DNA of 37,405 bases from Flammeovirgaceae bacterium BBD 1991-12 (lineage in GTDB: Bacteria; Bacteroidota; Bacteroidia; Cytophagales; Cyclobacteriaceae), in NCBI GenBank assembly GCA_001657315.1, contig LYSV01000104.1, forward strand, positions 1 to 37,405, given 5' to 3'. This document shows positions 3,495 through 12,439 of the stretch, one piece after another. The notes under the pieces were generated by a model, which saw only the letters and a program-made list of their open reading frames with translations, searched no databases and had not been told where the DNA came from. Made by a program: the position numbers and the translations under genes. Each line of letters starts with the position of its first letter. Positions within the stretch are counted from its first letter, which is position 1.

Positions 3495-5000
3495 TCAAAC
3501 CAATCCCGCAGCCAAAATCCCCGAATCCATCGCCTCAAACAGCAGTGGCAATCGGCTGTTGTCCACACCTGCATAGACGATGTTTTTATTTCCACGGTAT
3601 TGATTCTTGTCGTCGAAAAGATAATCCCGGCCAGGAATGGGCATAGCATGTCCCATTACCTTGATATGTACTTGCTGTATGGCTGGGCTGATGTCCTCAC
3701 CAAAATAATTACTGATATACTGTGCTGTTGCCTCGGCTATCTTCATTTTGTTATCTTCCACATGGACCAGATCATTGCGGGATGAGGGAGGCAGGCAATA
3801 GTAGGCCGTTAGTACCCAGTGTTCCTGTGAGGCCATGTGCTGTGTAGTGGAATCGATAAATCCCAAAAAGGTTCCGTCTTCTACAAGCATTTCATTCTGC
3901 CAGTAGCCGGGGTATTCCGGGGTACGGTCCAGCACCAGGTTCACTACCATCCAGGGAGCATATTGGTTGGCCTGAAAAAGATGCTGATCCTGTGGGAATA
4001 TATATTTCAACGCATGTTTTTGCCCGGCATAAATGATCTTCCTTGTCTTTATTGTCCTGATGACCTGATCTGTTACATCAATAACCTCAACATGGAAACC
4101 ATCCGACACTTCAGAGATATGCTTAACCAGATGGTTGGTCATTAATCGTTCTCCCCCCACATAGTTTGCCATTTTTTGAATGAAGTAGTGATTCCCCTCC
4201 GGTGGAGAGAAAAGCTCTACCACCTCCCGGTTATAGGGCCGGCAGATAAAATAATGGATACCAGCCAGTGCTGATACCGTATGGGCATCAGCCCCATAGT
4301 CGTCTTTCATGTGGTAGCTGAGACCTGCTACAAAATCATTCGTGAGGTTGAGACGGCTTTTTAGGAAATCAATAAAGGACAGTTTGTCAAGAGGCCTGAG
4401 TTTTTCATCGATCAATCGTGTGGGAAGATGCATTTCCCCCCTGTAGCTTTCAATAAGACTGAAAAAATCGTCCCTCAACGTCCCCCTGGGCAGTACCTCC
4501 TTTCGGATCTCCCCATGATCATAGCATTGGTTTTTTCTGCGATGCATCACCAGATGCTGCTCGTCTGTAAAACCCCATGCGGCCTTCCATGGTTGATGTC
4601 TGATAATATTCAGTGATTCCAGGAACTCCAACACCTCCTGCCCGTAGGTGTCCGGATAGGCCATGTCATAATGTGCCCCCTGGGCAAACGAGAGCTTGTC
4701 GGAATACCACGCAGAGGAAGTGCCCCCCAGGTCACTGGAAAGCTCACACAATAGAAAATTACGGTCCTTCAACTTACACGCTGCGGTAAGTCCTGCTATA
4801 CCCCCTCCGACGATCATGGTATCAACGGAACCTCCGGGTATCCGGTCAAACTGTTCACTTTTATAGATAAGATGACCTGTGTCTGCATCGGAGTGTACAT
4901 GAACAGGGTAGGCGACAGGCCTGTTGTCCCAACCACATGATTTCAGGATAACAGGTAGTGAAAGAATAGATGAAGTCCTGATAAAATCCCTGCGGTTCAT
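3495..5000 (-). CDS. Tat-exported FAD-dependent amine-oxidase-like oxidoreductase
   Basis: A 501-residue flavoprotein of the NAD(P)-binding/amine-oxidase superfamily. The N-terminus MNRRDFIRTSS is a twin-arginine signal, followed by a hydrophobic stretch and a lipobox-like LKSC, so it may be a Tat-exported lipoprotein. The dinucleotide-binding motif GGGIAGLTAACKL is near residue 64, with the acidic residue closing the beta-alpha-beta fold in LLCELSSDLGGTS. The C-terminal FAD-contact region is YAGVDNSRLPLLFEAMDSG, as in amine oxidases and phytoene desaturase-like enzymes. It lies 12 bp downstream of a spermidine-synthase-like gene in a four-gene cluster headed by S-adenosylmethionine decarboxylase. 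A polyamine or aminopropyl product is therefore a reasonable substrate guess, but this is inference from context. Confidence 0.8.
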   Translation of the reverse strand: MNRRDFIRTSSILSLPVILKSCGWDNRPVAYPVHVHSDADTGHLIYKSEQFDRIPGGSVDTMIVGGGIAGLTAACKLKDRNFLLCELSSDLGGTSSAWYSDKLSFAQGAHYDMAYPDTYGQEVLEFLESLNIIRHQPWKAAWGFTDEQHLVMHRRKNQCYDHGEIRKEVLPRGTLRDDFFSLIESYRGEMHLPTRLIDEKLRPLDKLSFIDFLKSRLNLTNDFVAGLSYHMKDDYGADAHTVSALAGIHYFICRPYNREVVELFSPPEGNHYFIQKMANYVGGERLMTNHLVKHISEVSDGFHVEVIDVTDQVIRTIKTRKIIYAGQKHALKYIFPQDQHLFQANQYAPWMVVNLVLDRTPEYPGYWQNEMLVEDGTFLGFIDSTTQHMASQEHWVLTAYYCLPPSSRNDLVHVEDNKMKIAEATAQYISNYFGEDISPAIQQVHIKVMGHAMPIPGRDYLFDDKNQYRGNKNIVYAGVDNSRLPLLFEAMDSGILAAGLV

Positions 5001-9083: not shown

Positions 9084-9971
9084 TTATTTGAAGCGGTCTG
9101 CCACGATCAGCTCTTTGGTGCCATGCCCCCACGCGTAAAAGCCATTACCGGATTTCACCCCTTTGTGCCCTGCTTCTACCATATTGACCAAAAGAGGACA
9201 GGGAGCGTATTTGGGATTTCCGAATCCGTTGTAAAGCACATTCAGAATCGAAAGGCAAACGTCCAGCCCGATGAAATCAGCCAGTTGGAGTGGACCCATA
9301 GGATGAGCCATGCCCAGCTTCATTACAGTATCAATTTCCTCTACACCGGCCACACCCTCATACAGTGAATAGATCGCTTCATTGATCATGGGCATGAGTA
9401 TCCTGTTGGCAATAAAGCCGGGATAATCGTTCACCTCTACCGGCACCTTACCCAGCTTTTTGGAAAGCTCCATAATGGTTTGGGTAACCTCATCCGTGGT
9501 ATTATACCCCCGGATCACCTCTATGAGCTTCATAACAGGTACCGGATTCATAAAATGCATACCAATAACTTTATCAGACCGGTTGGTGACAGCAGCGATC
9601 TTTGTAATGGAGATAGAAGAGGTGTTGGTAGCGAGTATAGTATCCGGGCCACAAACAGCATCCAGATCCTGAAAGATCTTCAATTTCAGATCAGTGTTCT
9701 CAGTGGCTGCCTCCACCACAAGATCTGCCGGGCCAACTCCCTCAGACAATGAGGTATAGGTGGTAATATTGCCAAGTGTGGTACTTTTGTCCTCTTCAGA
9801 AATGATCTCCTTTTTGATCTGACGATCCAGGTTTGCACCAATGGTTTTTATAGCCTTGTCCAGGGCTTCCTGAGCTATGTCGATCAATGATACGTTATAT
9901 CCATTCTGCGCAAAAACATGGGCTATGCCATTGCCCATGGTTCCGGATCCTATAACAGCAATATTTTTCAT
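9084..9971 (-). CDS. hbd: 3-hydroxybutyryl-CoA dehydrogenase
   Basis: A 295-residue NAD-dependent dehydrogenase that interconverts acetoacetyl-CoA and 3-hydroxybutyryl-CoA in fatty-acid or butyrate metabolism. The N-terminal Rossmann motif GSGTMGNGIAHVFAQNGY is at residues 7-24. The domain junction HFMNPVPVMKLIEVIRG carries the catalytic His, and the family signature continues with DYPGFIANRILMPMINEA. The C-terminal helical domain has GMAHPMGPLQLADFIGLD. The length is normal for the family. It is divergent from the CvfB-like gene, with compound short-period arrays in the shared spacer. Confidence 0.95.
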   Translation of the reverse strand: MKNIAVIGSGTMGNGIAHVFAQNGYNVSLIDIAQEALDKAIKTIGANLDRQIKKEIISEEDKSTTLGNITTYTSLSEGVGPADLVVEAATENTDLKLKIFQDLDAVCGPDTILATNTSSISITKIAAVTNRSDKVIGMHFMNPVPVMKLIEVIRGYNTTDEVTQTIMELSKKLGKVPVEVNDYPGFIANRILMPMINEAIYSLYEGVAGVEEIDTVMKLGMAHPMGPLQLADFIGLDVCLSILNVLYNGFGNPKYAPCPLLVNMVEAGHKGVKSGNGFYAWGHGTKELIVADRFK

Positions 9972-10014
9972 ATATGGTTTGGTTTGTTAAAGTCGCAAAT
10001 ATAGGTGAATGTAG

Positions 10015-10062
10015 GAAGTGTTGAAGTGTTAATGTGCTGAAGTGTTAGAGTGTTGAGGTGCT
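10015..10062. repeat. 8-bp period array, left copy (6 units)
   Basis: Six contiguous octamers: GAAGTGTT, GAAGTGTT, AATGTGCT, GAAGTGTT, AGAGTGTT, GAGGTGCT. They are the reverse complement type of the octamers at 11018-11145. The array lies in the promoter spacer between the divergent hbd and CvfB-like genes and abuts a heptamer array. Confidence 0.85.
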
Positions 10063-10069
10063 GCTTTAT

Positions 10070-10114
10070 ACTCAAGACTTACTACTCAATACTCATTACT
10101 AATCACTCAGTACT
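10070..10114. repeat. 7-bp period array, left copy (6 units plus ACT)
   Basis: Six contiguous heptamers all beginning ACT: ACTCAAG, ACTTACT, ACTCAAT, ACTCATT, ACTAATC, ACTCAGT, then a partial ACT. Bases 10074-10102 match 10961-10989 exactly in inverted orientation (29 bp). It ends 22 bp before the CvfB-like start codon. Confidence 0.88.
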
Positions 10115-10136
10115 GTATTTTGCCTAACTTCGCAAC

Positions 10137-10964
10137 ATGATGACCATTGGCAACTATTATGATCTGGAGGTGTTGAGGGAGGTGGAGTTTGGCATGTACC
10201 TGCAGTCTGATCTGGGAGATATTCTCATTCCACGCAAGTATATTCCTGAAGGAACCGTAGTAGGGGATAAAATTCACGTATTTCTGTACCGTGATTCAGA
10301 GGACCGGCTCATAGCCACCACACTTCATCCGGCAGGTGTCGTTGACCAGTTTGTCTCATTAACGGTTTCAGACGCCGGACCTCATGGGGCATTTATGTCA
10401 TGGGGCCTTGAAAAAGACCTGTTTGTGCCCAAAAAAGAGCAACCCGTGCCGTTCAAAAAGGAGAACAGGTATGTGGTACGCATCTGTCTGGACCACAGGA
10501 CAGACCGGCTGATAGGAGTTGGTAAGCTCAGGGCATTCCTGACCAAGCCTGATGCAACGGTCAAGGAAAATGATCAGGTGGATCTTCTGGTATACAGTAA
10601 AACAGACATGGGTTTTCTGGCAGTTATTGATCAAAAGTATTCCGGCCTCATCTATCACAATGACATATTCTCCGGCCTGTCAGTAGGAGATGCTCTTAAA
10701 GGGTATATCAAAAAAGTCAGAGATGACGGAAAAATCGACCTGACCCTGAACAGACCGGGCTTAGAGGCCATTTCTGACAACAAGCAGATCATCCTGAATA
10801 ATCTCATCATGAACAATGGCTTTCTGCCTCTGCATGACAGATCGGATCCAAATGAGATCTCCGATTCCCTGGGCATGAGCAAGAAGGCTTTCAAAAAGGC
10901 CGTTGGCGGTCTCCTGAAAGACGGCGCCATAGGACTTACTGATGAAGGGATAAAAAGTCTTTAG
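10137..10964 (+). CDS. CvfB-like S1 RNA-binding protein
   Basis: A 275-residue protein resembling the CvfB/YitL family: tandem S1-type OB folds followed by a winged-helix domain. The first S1-like segment contains MYLQSDLGDILIPRKYIPEG, the second GAFMSWGLEKDLFVPKKEQ and the third TDMGFLAVIDQKYSGLIYHN followed by GYIKKVRDDGKIDLTLNRPG. The C-terminal winged helix ends with AFKKAVGGLLKDGAIGLTDEGI. Family members bind RNA and affect virulence-factor or ribosome-related expression; the exact role is not established here. Two ATG codons are adjacent (10137 and 10140). The stop codon TAG at 10962-10964 lies within the right inverted repeat. Confidence 0.88.
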   Translation: MMTIGNYYDLEVLREVEFGMYLQSDLGDILIPRKYIPEGTVVGDKIHVFLYRDSEDRLIATTLHPAGVVDQFVSLTVSDAGPHGAFMSWGLEKDLFVPKKEQPVPFKKENRYVVRICLDHRTDRLIGVGKLRAFLTKPDATVKENDQVDLLVYSKTDMGFLAVIDQKYSGLIYHNDIFSGLSVGDALKGYIKKVRDDGKIDLTLNRPGLEAISDNKQIILNNLIMNNGFLPLHDRSDPNEISDSLGMSKKAFKKAVGGLLKDGAIGLTDEGIKSL

Positions 10965-11004
10965 TAATGAGTATTGAGTAGTAAGTCTTAAGTCGTAAGT
11001 ATAA
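10963..11004. repeat. 7-bp period array, right copy (6 units)
   Basis: Six contiguous heptamers beginning AGT: AGTAATG, AGTATTG, AGTAGTA, AGTCTTA, AGTCGTA, AGTATAA. This is the inverted counterpart of 10070-10114, with one extra heptamer unit. The first unit begins at the second base of the TAG stop of the CvfB-like gene. Confidence 0.88.
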
Positions 11005-11017
11005 AACAGCGTACTCT

Positions 11018-11145
11018 AACACTTCAACACTTCAACACTTCAACACTTCAGCACTTAAGCACCTTAGCACTTCAGCACCTTAACACCTTAGCACTTCAGC
11101 ACCTTAACACCTTAACACTTCAGCACATTAACACTTAAACACATA
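11018..11145. repeat. 8-bp period array, right copy (16 units)
   Basis: Sixteen contiguous octamers close to A(A/G)CAC(C/T)T(C/T), such as AACACTTC, AGCACCTT and AGCACTTC. The first four units are identical and later ones diverge at the same positions. It occupies the gap between the CvfB-like gene and the convergent lipoprotein gene ending at 11153. Confidence 0.9.
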
Positions 11146-11152
11146 CAGCTTT

Positions 11153-12298
11153 TCAATACTTTGCATAAAACCGGTTGATCGCTCCTGTTAGCTGATCGTA
11201 AATAGGCCTTGTGAACTCGATGAAAAGATTCTGAGGTGGAGGAGGGGAGGCCTCTTTGCTCTTGCAGATCTTTAGCTGCTCATCGGTGAGGGCTCTTTCA
11301 TCGCCATTGAAGGAGCCCCATCGTGAAAGCCATACATACTCACCGTTAAACTTTCGGTGGGTCAGCACGGCATTGGTGTTGCCATCGAATACCTGCATGC
11401 TGAAAAGCCCGTTGGAAACTACCTCCTTTTTATGAATGGTGACCTTTGCGTAGACGGTATTGTAGGCGTCTATCTTTGATCCGTCTTCCAGAGTAACGGT
11501 CCCTACCTTCACACTGTCCTTGCTCACAGATTCCGTATTGCGCTCTAACAATGTCTTTCCCACAACAAAGTCATCGAACTGCAGTCGCAGATAGTGGTCT
11601 ACAAAGGGTAGTTGTTCCTGCTCTGCTTCCAGGGGTGTGTAGAAGCGAACGAACTGGCTGCTTCTGAACCTTGTATGCAGGAATTCTTCGATCTTGTCCT
11701 GAAAAAAGCGAGCACTGAGATCATATCGTGTAGGTACGGGGATCTGCTCTATCACCACCTTGAGTGTAGCCCTGAATCTGGCTTCATCCAGCTTATTTTG
11801 TACGTCCTTGTAATTAGGGACGAAGGTTTGCACATCCTTGAAACGGTAAAAGGCTTGTTTGGCGTCTTCCCGGGTATCCCTGCTGAGCGCCAGCAGACCT
11901 GCCTCATAGCTCTCTTCAGCTGCCTTTTCCTTGAGCTCCGATACTTTGGTGTAATAGTTTTTGGGGTTGGCTACTACTCTCAGCGCTCCGGGAGATCTTC
12001 TTATCTCCTCATACATTCGATTGATCTGTTCATAATATCCCAGAGATTCCTTGAATTTGAAAGGACCATTGGCTGAAATGGCGTTCACCGCGTTTCTCTC
12101 CAACGTTTCAATAGCCAATGGGTAACTCTGTTTGAGTGTTTCGCGTGATCTTTTGTGTGTCGGGTTTTGCCGGAGGCGATTTACTGACTTTATTACTGCC
12201 TGATAGTAATCTCCCTGCTCAAAAGCCTTTTTGCCTGATGAACATGCCGAAAAAAATAAGATCAGCACAAAAAAAATAGCATAATAAAATCTGTTCAT
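11153..12298 (-). CDS. TPR-like outer-membrane lipoprotein, hypothetical
   Basis: A 381-residue lipoprotein. The signal MNRFYYAIFFVLILFFSAC has lipobox FSAC near residue 19, followed by SSGKKAFEQGDYYQAVIKSV, a tetratricopeptide-like helical pair. The first ~190 residues look helical (AGLLALSRDTREDAKQAFYRF), the rest beta-rich with a conserved aromatic ending (FIEFTRPIYDQLTGAINRFY). No enzymatic motif is visible. Such proteins occur widely in Cytophagales without an assigned role; an envelope assembly or scaffolding function is possible. A heptamer array separates it from the upstream GH31 gene on the same strand. Confidence 0.75.
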   Translation of the reverse strand: MNRFYYAIFFVLILFFSACSSGKKAFEQGDYYQAVIKSVNRLRQNPTHKRSRETLKQSYPLAIETLERNAVNAISANGPFKFKESLGYYEQINRMYEEIRRSPGALRVVANPKNYYTKVSELKEKAAEESYEAGLLALSRDTREDAKQAFYRFKDVQTFVPNYKDVQNKLDEARFRATLKVVIEQIPVPTRYDLSARFFQDKIEEFLHTRFRSSQFVRFYTPLEAEQEQLPFVDHYLRLQFDDFVVGKTLLERNTESVSKDSVKVGTVTLEDGSKIDAYNTVYAKVTIHKKEVVSNGLFSMQVFDGNTNAVLTHRKFNGEYVWLSRWGSFNGDERALTDEQLKICKSKEASPPPPQNLFIEFTRPIYDQLTGAINRFYAKY

Positions 12299-12348
12299 AT
12301 CAACGTTCTTTGATCATCAGACCACAAATAACATATTTGATGCCAAAT

Positions 12349-12439
12349 ATTCAAAGTTCAACGTTGAATGTTCAAAGTTCTGAGTTGAAAATCGAAAGTT
12401 CAGTGCTCCAACATTCAACACAGAACACAGAACCTGGAA
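12349..12439. repeat. 7-bp period array (13 units)
   Basis: Thirteen contiguous degenerate heptamers, including ATTCAAA, GTTCAAC, GTTGAAT, GTTCAAA, GTTCTGA, GTTGAAA, ATCGAAA, GTTCAGT, CATTCAA and CACAGAA twice. They fill almost all of the gap between the GH31 stop (12446) and the start of the downstream lipoprotein gene (12298). The unit differs from the heptamers near the CvfB-like gene. Confidence 0.82.

What the first reader, a model, noticed from the sequence alone, without database searches (positions are those of the whole stretch)
10015..11145. Mirror-symmetric compound arrays (8-bp and 7-bp periods) flank the CvfB-like gene
On the left: six GAAGTGTT-type octamers (10015-10062), then six ACT-headed heptamers (10070-10114). 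On the right, in inverted order and orientation: six AGT-headed heptamers (10963-11004), then sixteen ARCACYTY octamers (11018-11145). Bases 10074-10102 and 10961-10989 are a perfect 29-bp inverted repeat. The right heptamer array has one extra unit compared with the left, and the octamer count differs (6 versus 16), as expected for slippage. The two arrays thus behave as one composite element in two inverted copies, and the right copy starts inside the stop codon. Heptamer arrays (STRR) are known in cyanobacteria; I do not know of a described composite 7/8-bp inverted pair in this group. Possible roles are recombination or inversion of the enclosed gene, a nucleoid or regulator binding array, or a mobile repeat.
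Basis: seen in the sequence. Interest (0 to 1): 0.72.

Follow-up and report, generated by a model that had tools for sequence, protein, structure and literature searches.

The report
Outward-pointing repeat arrays at gene edges
The gene is flanked by short repeated DNA words that look like a mirror image because such repeats, in this bacterium and its kin, mostly sit at gene edges and point away from the gene, a placement rule described before for other repeats and still unexplained.

Summary
In detail: coordinates, unit counts and the perfect 29-bp inverted repeat check. The window lies in an 8.6-Mb Fulvivirga-type genome. The arrays are better read as four gene-edge arrays than as one composite element in two copies. 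Degenerate 7- and 8-bp arrays with RGT-headed units (AGTNNTR, RGTGYTDA, RGTTAYTNR) sit near gene edges with the G-bearing strand pointing away from the gene: 58 of 69 scored in this genome, 21 of 21 and 12 of 14 in two other genera. Neighbouring opposite arrays converged in 20 of 20 pairs. Mirror orientation around a gene follows. Mixed 7/8 pairs recur (C202; a sister species). The two sides of cvfB also share a linker, so one was probably copied inverted from the other. No sign of gene inversion: same orientation in the 16 of 20 relatives' loci that hold both genes. The placement rule is in print for G-quadruplex heptamers of Xanthomonas and Nostoc (PMC4692102); no array checked here has four GGG runs. 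Stop-codon filtering fails as a general cause too. The cause remains inferred.

The parts
10015..10062 (+). left octamer array, 6 units RGTGYTDA, G strand reading away from the 5' edge of the 3HCDH gene
   Evidence: orthologous longer array in G012
10060..10072 (-). left linker, AGTATAAAGCAGC on the minus strand, joining heptamers and octamers
10070..10114 (-). left heptamer array, 6 units AGTNNTR on the minus strand, reading away from the 5' edge of cvfB (23 bp before the ATG)
10137..10964 (+). cvfB-like gene (S1_2 and CvfB winged-helix domains), bracketed by the arrays
10956..11004 (+). right heptamer array, 7 units AGTNNTR, starting in the last codons and the stop codon of cvfB and reading outward
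11001..11017 (+). right linker ATAAAACAGCGTACTCT, matching the left linker
11018..11145 (-). right octamer array, 16 units, G strand on the minus strand, reading outward from the 3' edge of the convergent gene 11153-12298
9084..9971 (-). 3-hydroxyacyl-CoA dehydrogenase gene, divergent neighbour; TATATTTG box on the minus strand at 9996-10003
   Evidence: the box is recalled as the Bacteroidota -7 element
11153..12298 (-). convergent neighbour gene, no Pfam match at E 0.001

Best explanation
These are four members of a genome-wide population of degenerate short tandem arrays with RGT-headed units, spaced 7 or 8 bp apart. An array sits at a gene edge, 5' or 3', with its G/T-rich strand running away from the gene and its G-poor A/C-rich strand running into it. 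Two arrays in one intergenic region therefore converge, and a gene with an array at each edge shows them in mirror orientation. Shown: the arrays, the polarity, the convergence, conserved sites with changing unit number between sister species, and inverted relatedness of the two sides of cvfB. Inferred: unit number changes by slippage; multi-unit blocks spread by copying (template switching or gene conversion); and the polarity is kept because RNA read into a gene at its edge must be G-poor and unstructured while RNA leaving it need not be, that is, selection on transcript ends, with no dedicated element, recombinase or regulator.
For: Polarity by nearest predicted gene edge within 150 bp. G000: AGT 30 out/7 in (1 more too far, 1 inside a gene dropped), GTG 12/1 (1 too far), GTTA 16/3. 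G051: AGT 21/0 (1 too far). G040: GTG 12/2 (10 too far). Fulvivirga relatives: GTG 11/1 (1 too far), AGT 9/3 (1 too far, 1 inside). 5' edges are stricter than 3' edges: G000 AGT 13/1 against 17/6. Neighbouring opposite arrays converge in 20 of 20 (a few are orthologues). 16 of the 17 3'-outward AGT arrays in G000 start between 14 bp before and 13 bp after the predicted gene end. In G051, 11 of 17 5' arrays lie within 12 bp of the predicted start codon, one overlapping it; by eye three more do if the start is reread. Arrays at orthologous places with other unit numbers at 6 loci (5 against G012, 1 against G013). G012 keeps heptamers at the cvfB stop although the next gene differs. Unit order is non-random (p 0.0018), as block copying predicts. 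The inward strand is 4-8% G.
Against: The cause of polarity was not tested at RNA level. Left of cvfB the arrays lie upstream of the likely promoters, so they may not be in its mRNA. All other arrays of period 7, 8, 14, 15, 16, 21 or 24 in the same loci gave 24 out/17 in, no clear rule (that pool held 7 GTTA arrays and a few sub-threshold AGT- or GTG-like ones). Generic upstream flanks show the same bias weakly (ACT:AGT 173:111) and downstream flanks do not (127:131). Gene edges come from a home-made gene finder; one G040 array was called out and in. Arrays are not all independent. A bias of the copying process itself could give the same rule without selection.
Confidence: 0.55

Rival explanations
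1. Neutral repeat DNA (STRR-like) that grows by slippage and is merely filtered by reading frames: the outward strand carries stop codons in every frame, so it can cap an ORF, and start codons, so it is not tolerated in a leader.
For: AGT units with T at position 6 keep a stop in 133 of 134 (position 7: A58 G50 T25 C1), 141 of 147 units overall; octamers 53 of 70 (which used 75 of 100 listed heptamer strings and 46 of 54 octamer strings). The G strand carries 0.39 (AGT) and 1.41 (GTG) start codons per unit against 0.06 and 0.05 on the C strand.
Against: The GTTA family obeys the same polarity (16/3) although its stop codons are denser on the inward strand (1.28 against 0.51 per unit over 19 arrays; 7 of 7 arrays). 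Read by eye, the GGGAATC unit of the Xanthomonas paper has no stop on either strand, yet follows the same rule (PMC4692102).
Confidence: 0.25
2. Directional transcription insulators: any transcript that enters a gene from outside first reads the G-poor, C-bearing strand, which would load Rho (or, for same-family convergent pairs, form a terminator hairpin) and stop it.
For: Explains outward polarity at both gene ends and convergence in all 20 pairs; the inward strand is 4-8% G; the two same-family pairs folded form strong hairpins (z -11.4 in L322, -5.2 in L020).
Against: No RNA data. The mixed pair at cvfB is no better folded than shuffles (z -0.42), nor are the C202 pair (0.74, -0.47) and L241 (-1.35). 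Nostoc shows the rule, and cyanobacteria are recalled to lack Rho. Arrays a few bases before start codons would sit in the gene's own leader.
Confidence: 0.15
3. Halves of convergent inverted-pair (MITE- or REP-like) elements: all arrays were born as X-> <-X pairs and single arrays are remnants.
For: 20 of 20 opposite neighbours converge, 15 of them of one family; 10 of 19 GTTA arrays are in such pairs.
Against: 31 of 38 AGT and 9 of 14 GTG arrays have no partner at the scan threshold (two AGT cases, L004 and L014, show sub-threshold partners by eye); 5 of 20 pairs are mixed; no constant ends were seen by eye. Target-site duplications and transposases were not searched for in the genome.
Confidence: 0.15
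4. One composite 7/8 mobile or duplicated element.
For: The linker is shared by the two sides; C202 matches across both modules (98 nt, 75%, E 3e-12); L241 in G012 has the same order.
Against: The C202 linker is shared only at AGTATAAAA; G012 carries the modules at separate edges of cvfB and lacks heptamers at the C202 site; most AGT and GTG arrays are single.
Confidence: 0.08
5. Inverted repeats for switching (inversion) of cvfB.
For: 29-bp perfect inverted repeat around an 828-bp gene.
Against: cvfB is divergent from 3HCDH in all 16 relatives' loci (of 20) that hold both genes, in some with another gene's space between; no recombinase among the 13 window proteins scanned.
Confidence: 0.02

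Closest known systems
GGGAATC / GGGGA(C/T)T heptamer repeats of Xanthomonas and Nostoc (Rehm et al. 2015, PMC4692102; abstract, sections 13, 15, 16 and passages seen)
   Same: Tandem heptamers, mostly intergenic; G-rich strand antisense just upstream of ORFs and sense at or overlapping stop codons; inverted pairs mentioned; mostly the same gene pairs in related species with variable length; general metabolic genes
   Different: No array checked here has the four GGG runs of such a G-quadruplex; 8-bp families and mixed 7/8 convergent pairs; also present between divergent genes, where that paper finds under-representation
TAACTGA direct repeats of Beggiatoaceae, cyanobacteria and some Bacteroidetes (MacGregor 2015, PMC4679880; abstract and sections 9, 11, 12, 24 seen)
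   Same: Heptamers just upstream of start codons; in Flexibacter litoralis 12 of 14 sets forward before a start and one set in reverse right after a stop; the ACT-bearing strand is sense in leaders, as here
   Different: Nearly fixed unit; octamers are not mentioned in the parts seen; no such polarity in that paper's Microcystis sample
STRR heptamers of cyanobacteria (recalled, not read)
   Same: Degenerate 7-bp tandem arrays in intergenic DNA
   Different: Other unit sequences; no 7/8 pairing known to me

Membership tests
Polarised gene-edge heptamer repeats (Rehm type) | tandem units of 7 bp, mostly intergenic | tested here: met
   the octamer half differs in period
Polarised gene-edge heptamer repeats (Rehm type) | G strand antisense close upstream of ORFs and sense close to stop codons | tested here: met
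   (scored within 150 bp, most within 50)
Polarised gene-edge heptamer repeats (Rehm type) | G-quadruplex-forming (four GGG runs) | tested here: not met
   0 of 38 AGT and 0 of 14 GTG arrays, 0 of 19 GTTA, 0 of 24 in G040, 0 of 22 in G051; single GGG runs occur, in 12 of 19 GTTA arrays; two-layer forms not tested
TAACTGA repeats | unit TAACTGA | tested here: not met
   units are AGTNNTR and RGTGYTDA
MITE / composite mobile element | constant ends or conserved linker between copies | tested here: not met
   full linker shared only by the two sides of cvfB among the copies printed
MITE / composite mobile element | target-site duplication and empty sites | not tested
   only G013 seen as an array-free site
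Inverton (phase-variable inversion) | both orientations present | tested here: not met
   one orientation in 16 relatives' loci; reads of this strain not available
Inverton (phase-variable inversion) | recombinase nearby | tested here: inconclusive
   none among 13 window proteins scanned of 23 predicted
Intrinsic terminator / known RNA element | significant hairpin or Rfam match | tested here: not met
   z -0.42 (pair) and -0.67 (octamers alone); 0 Rfam matches at gathering score; the single terminator-like site lies inside cvfB

The most novel reading that the evidence does not exclude
Bacteria of several phyla mark gene edges with short tandem arrays whose unit sequence is free but whose polarity is fixed (G strand out, G-poor strand in), independent of G-quadruplexes and stop codons, because the inward strand is a directional signal that stops foreign transcripts from entering a gene. 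Convergent arrays such as the 7/8 pair beside cvfB would then be two-way insulators.
Probability: 0.15. Interest if true: 0.8.

Novelty: new variant of a known kind. Interest (0 to 1): 0.52.

Why it matters
The placement rule was reported for G-quadruplex heptamers and could be put down to G-quadruplexes. Here three families, two of them octamers, obey the same rule in another phylum without the four GGG runs, so its cause is probably something else. The rule also gives a simple reading of mirror-image repeats around genes, and it can be tested directly with RNA-end mapping and flipped arrays.

Tried and rejected
Gene inversion, an RNA hairpin or terminator made by the mixed pair, an Rfam element and a plasmid-borne element (one weak Enterococcus hit) led nowhere. 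A stop-codon filter looked convincing for AGT units but was contradicted as a general cause by the GTTA family. 'G-rich strand outward' does not hold clearly for the other families pooled (24/17; 12 more inside genes, 5 not scored). Paper searches gave no paper, 61 and 73 gave only unrelated ones; led to the two papers used. I saw no description of a 7/8 mirrored pair in these eight searches; subscription journals are mostly not held.

Limits of the counts. The sample is 16 stretches returned of 20 asked for by contig number plus 9 stretches on contigs that had hits, so the second set is not unbiased. G000 arrays studied are those brought; further places listed (for example C2, C12, C35, C74) were not fetched, and one search lists only 100 of 148 matches. 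share some G040 and G051 arrays and must not be added. The backwards control is uninformative, because GTG reads the same backwards. P values treat arrays as independent.

Full report
Observation. The 29-bp inverted repeat is exact and the right heptamers begin inside the stop codon TAG of the cvfB-like gene; one further unit, AGTCTTT, lies in the last codons. The match between the two sides is longer than stated: 89 nt at 79% identity across heptamers, linker and octamers, with a shared linker AGTATAAARCAGC.

Host. The window is contig C87 of an 8.59-Mb genome in 282 contigs. The nearest named relatives by cvfB are Fulvivirga (78% PL25a_bin.63, 74% M361, 61% imtechensis).

A population, not one element. 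The pattern of three RGTGYTNA units matches 17 times here (11 of them overlapping matches in the right array of this window), 0 for the reversed pattern, and occurs in 5 of 41 genomes of the family, this one included; three AGTNNTR units match 51 times (control 6) and occur in 14 of 41 genomes, where several genomes have as many control matches, probably because other heptamer families exist. In a sample of 377 kb, 16 of 22 intergenic TRF arrays have period 7, 14, 21, 8 or 16, with many unit families; not all of the 14- and 21-bp ones are heptamers. In the genus, the right composite finds matches in 5 of 15 genomes, this one included, next most in G012 with 20. Of the arrays scanned here, 31 of 38 AGT, 9 of 14 GTG and 9 of 19 GTTA arrays have no opposite partner within 300 bp.

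Polarity. For every scanned array I took the nearest predicted gene edge within 150 bp and asked whether the G-bearing strand reads away from it. In this genome: AGT 30 out, 7 in; GTG 12 out, 1 in; GTTA, examined later as a control octamer, 16 out, 3 in. Of the 17 AGT arrays that read outward from a 3' edge, 16 start between 14 bp before and 13 bp after the gene end; 6 others near a 3' edge read inward. In genus G051, AGT arrays gave 21 out, 0 in, 17 of them 5'; 11 of the 17 lie within 12 bp of the predicted start codon, the rest 36 to 64 bp by the gene finder, and three of these become close if the start is reread by eye; the genes read as ordinary housekeeping genes by eye. G040 gave 12 out, 2 in, 10 too far. 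In other genera AGT gave 15/4 (5 too far, 3 inside genes) and GTG 7/1 (2 too far), and in Fulvivirga relatives 9/3 and 11/1 (partly the same arrays). Neighbouring arrays of opposite orientation within 300 bp converge in 20 of 20 cases, 5 of them mixed families: both sides of cvfB, C202, G012 C194 and one GTTA/AGT pair in G004 (a few are orthologues). The mirror symmetry at cvfB follows from this rule: cvfB carries heptamers at both edges, each neighbour carries octamers at its facing edge, all pointing outward.

History at this locus. G012 has octamers at the orthologous divergent site, about 13 units against 6, between conserved promoter-side sequences; G013 has the same flanks and no array. 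Downstream of cvfB, G012 has a different gene but still five degenerate AGT units in 7-bp phase at the stop codon (29 of 35 positions; 1 of 5000 shuffles as good). So left octamers and right heptamers are probably old, and the inverse copies (left heptamers, right octamers) were seen only in this genome. Five further loci have arrays in orthologous places with other unit numbers, four against G012 and one against G013; at the C202 locus only the octamers are shared. At another locus G012 has GTG units where this genome has GTTA units. Unit order is non-random (p 0.0018), which suits copying of multi-unit blocks.

What explains the polarity. G-quadruplexes: none of the arrays checked has four GGG runs (0 of 52, 0 of 65), though single GGG runs occur, mostly in GTTA units. 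Stop codons: AGT units keep one almost always, but GTTA arrays obey although their stops are denser on the other strand (1.28 against 0.51 per unit). Background strand bias is weak. Hairpins: the two same-family convergent pairs folded are strong, the pair at cvfB and two other mixed pairs are not. What the obeying families share is a G/T-rich strand outward and a G-poor A/C strand (4-8% G) inward. I infer selection on what RNA reads into a gene, with a bias of the copying process as the main alternative.

Relation to known work. Rehm et al. [quoted passage not shown] MacGregor reports TAACTGA heptamers close before start codons in Beggiatoaceae and, in Flexibacter litoralis, one reversed set right after a stop. 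The arrays here are therefore a new variant of a known kind: other units, 8-bp families and mixed 7/8 convergent pairs, without the four-run G-quadruplex.

Noticed in passing
window 12346-12433: Another heptamer array (TTCAAAG, 7.6 units) followed by AACACAG units, between two minus-strand genes.
   Followed up: no
L010 (G000 C188), L249: Three permease-like genes in a row (FtsX/MacB type by eye) each end in an AGT array at the stop codon; L249 has a similar ending.
   Followed up: partly
L010, L022, L023, L246 intergenic regions: CAAC-type heptamers lie at the other edge of the intergenic region, often just before the start codon, opposite the AGT array (by eye).
   Followed up: no
L010 about 4910-4960, L012, L026, L028: A recurring G+C-rich stretch resembling GCTCACAGAGTCC...GTGG near the arrays, possibly a separate dispersed palindrome (by eye).
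   Followed up: no
L250:2436-2641 and L251:1419-1623: Two 21-bp tandem arrays of about 9.8 copies with similar units on different contigs.
   Followed up: no
G040 contigs C2, C4, C6, C13, C17, C29 near base 130: Six contigs have the same GTG octamer match about 130 bases from their start, as if it borders a multi-copy repeat that broke the assembly.
   Followed up: no
G000 C107:4332-4439 and C168:10543-10625: Two near-perfect arrays of other units (AGTAAAC, GTGAATTG/GTGAATGA).
   Followed up: no
NZ_CP068117.1 78380-78497 (Enterococcus hirae plasmid): Only plasmid record matching the queried stretch, in the octamers, 74.6% over 118 nt, no gene listed there.
   Followed up: no
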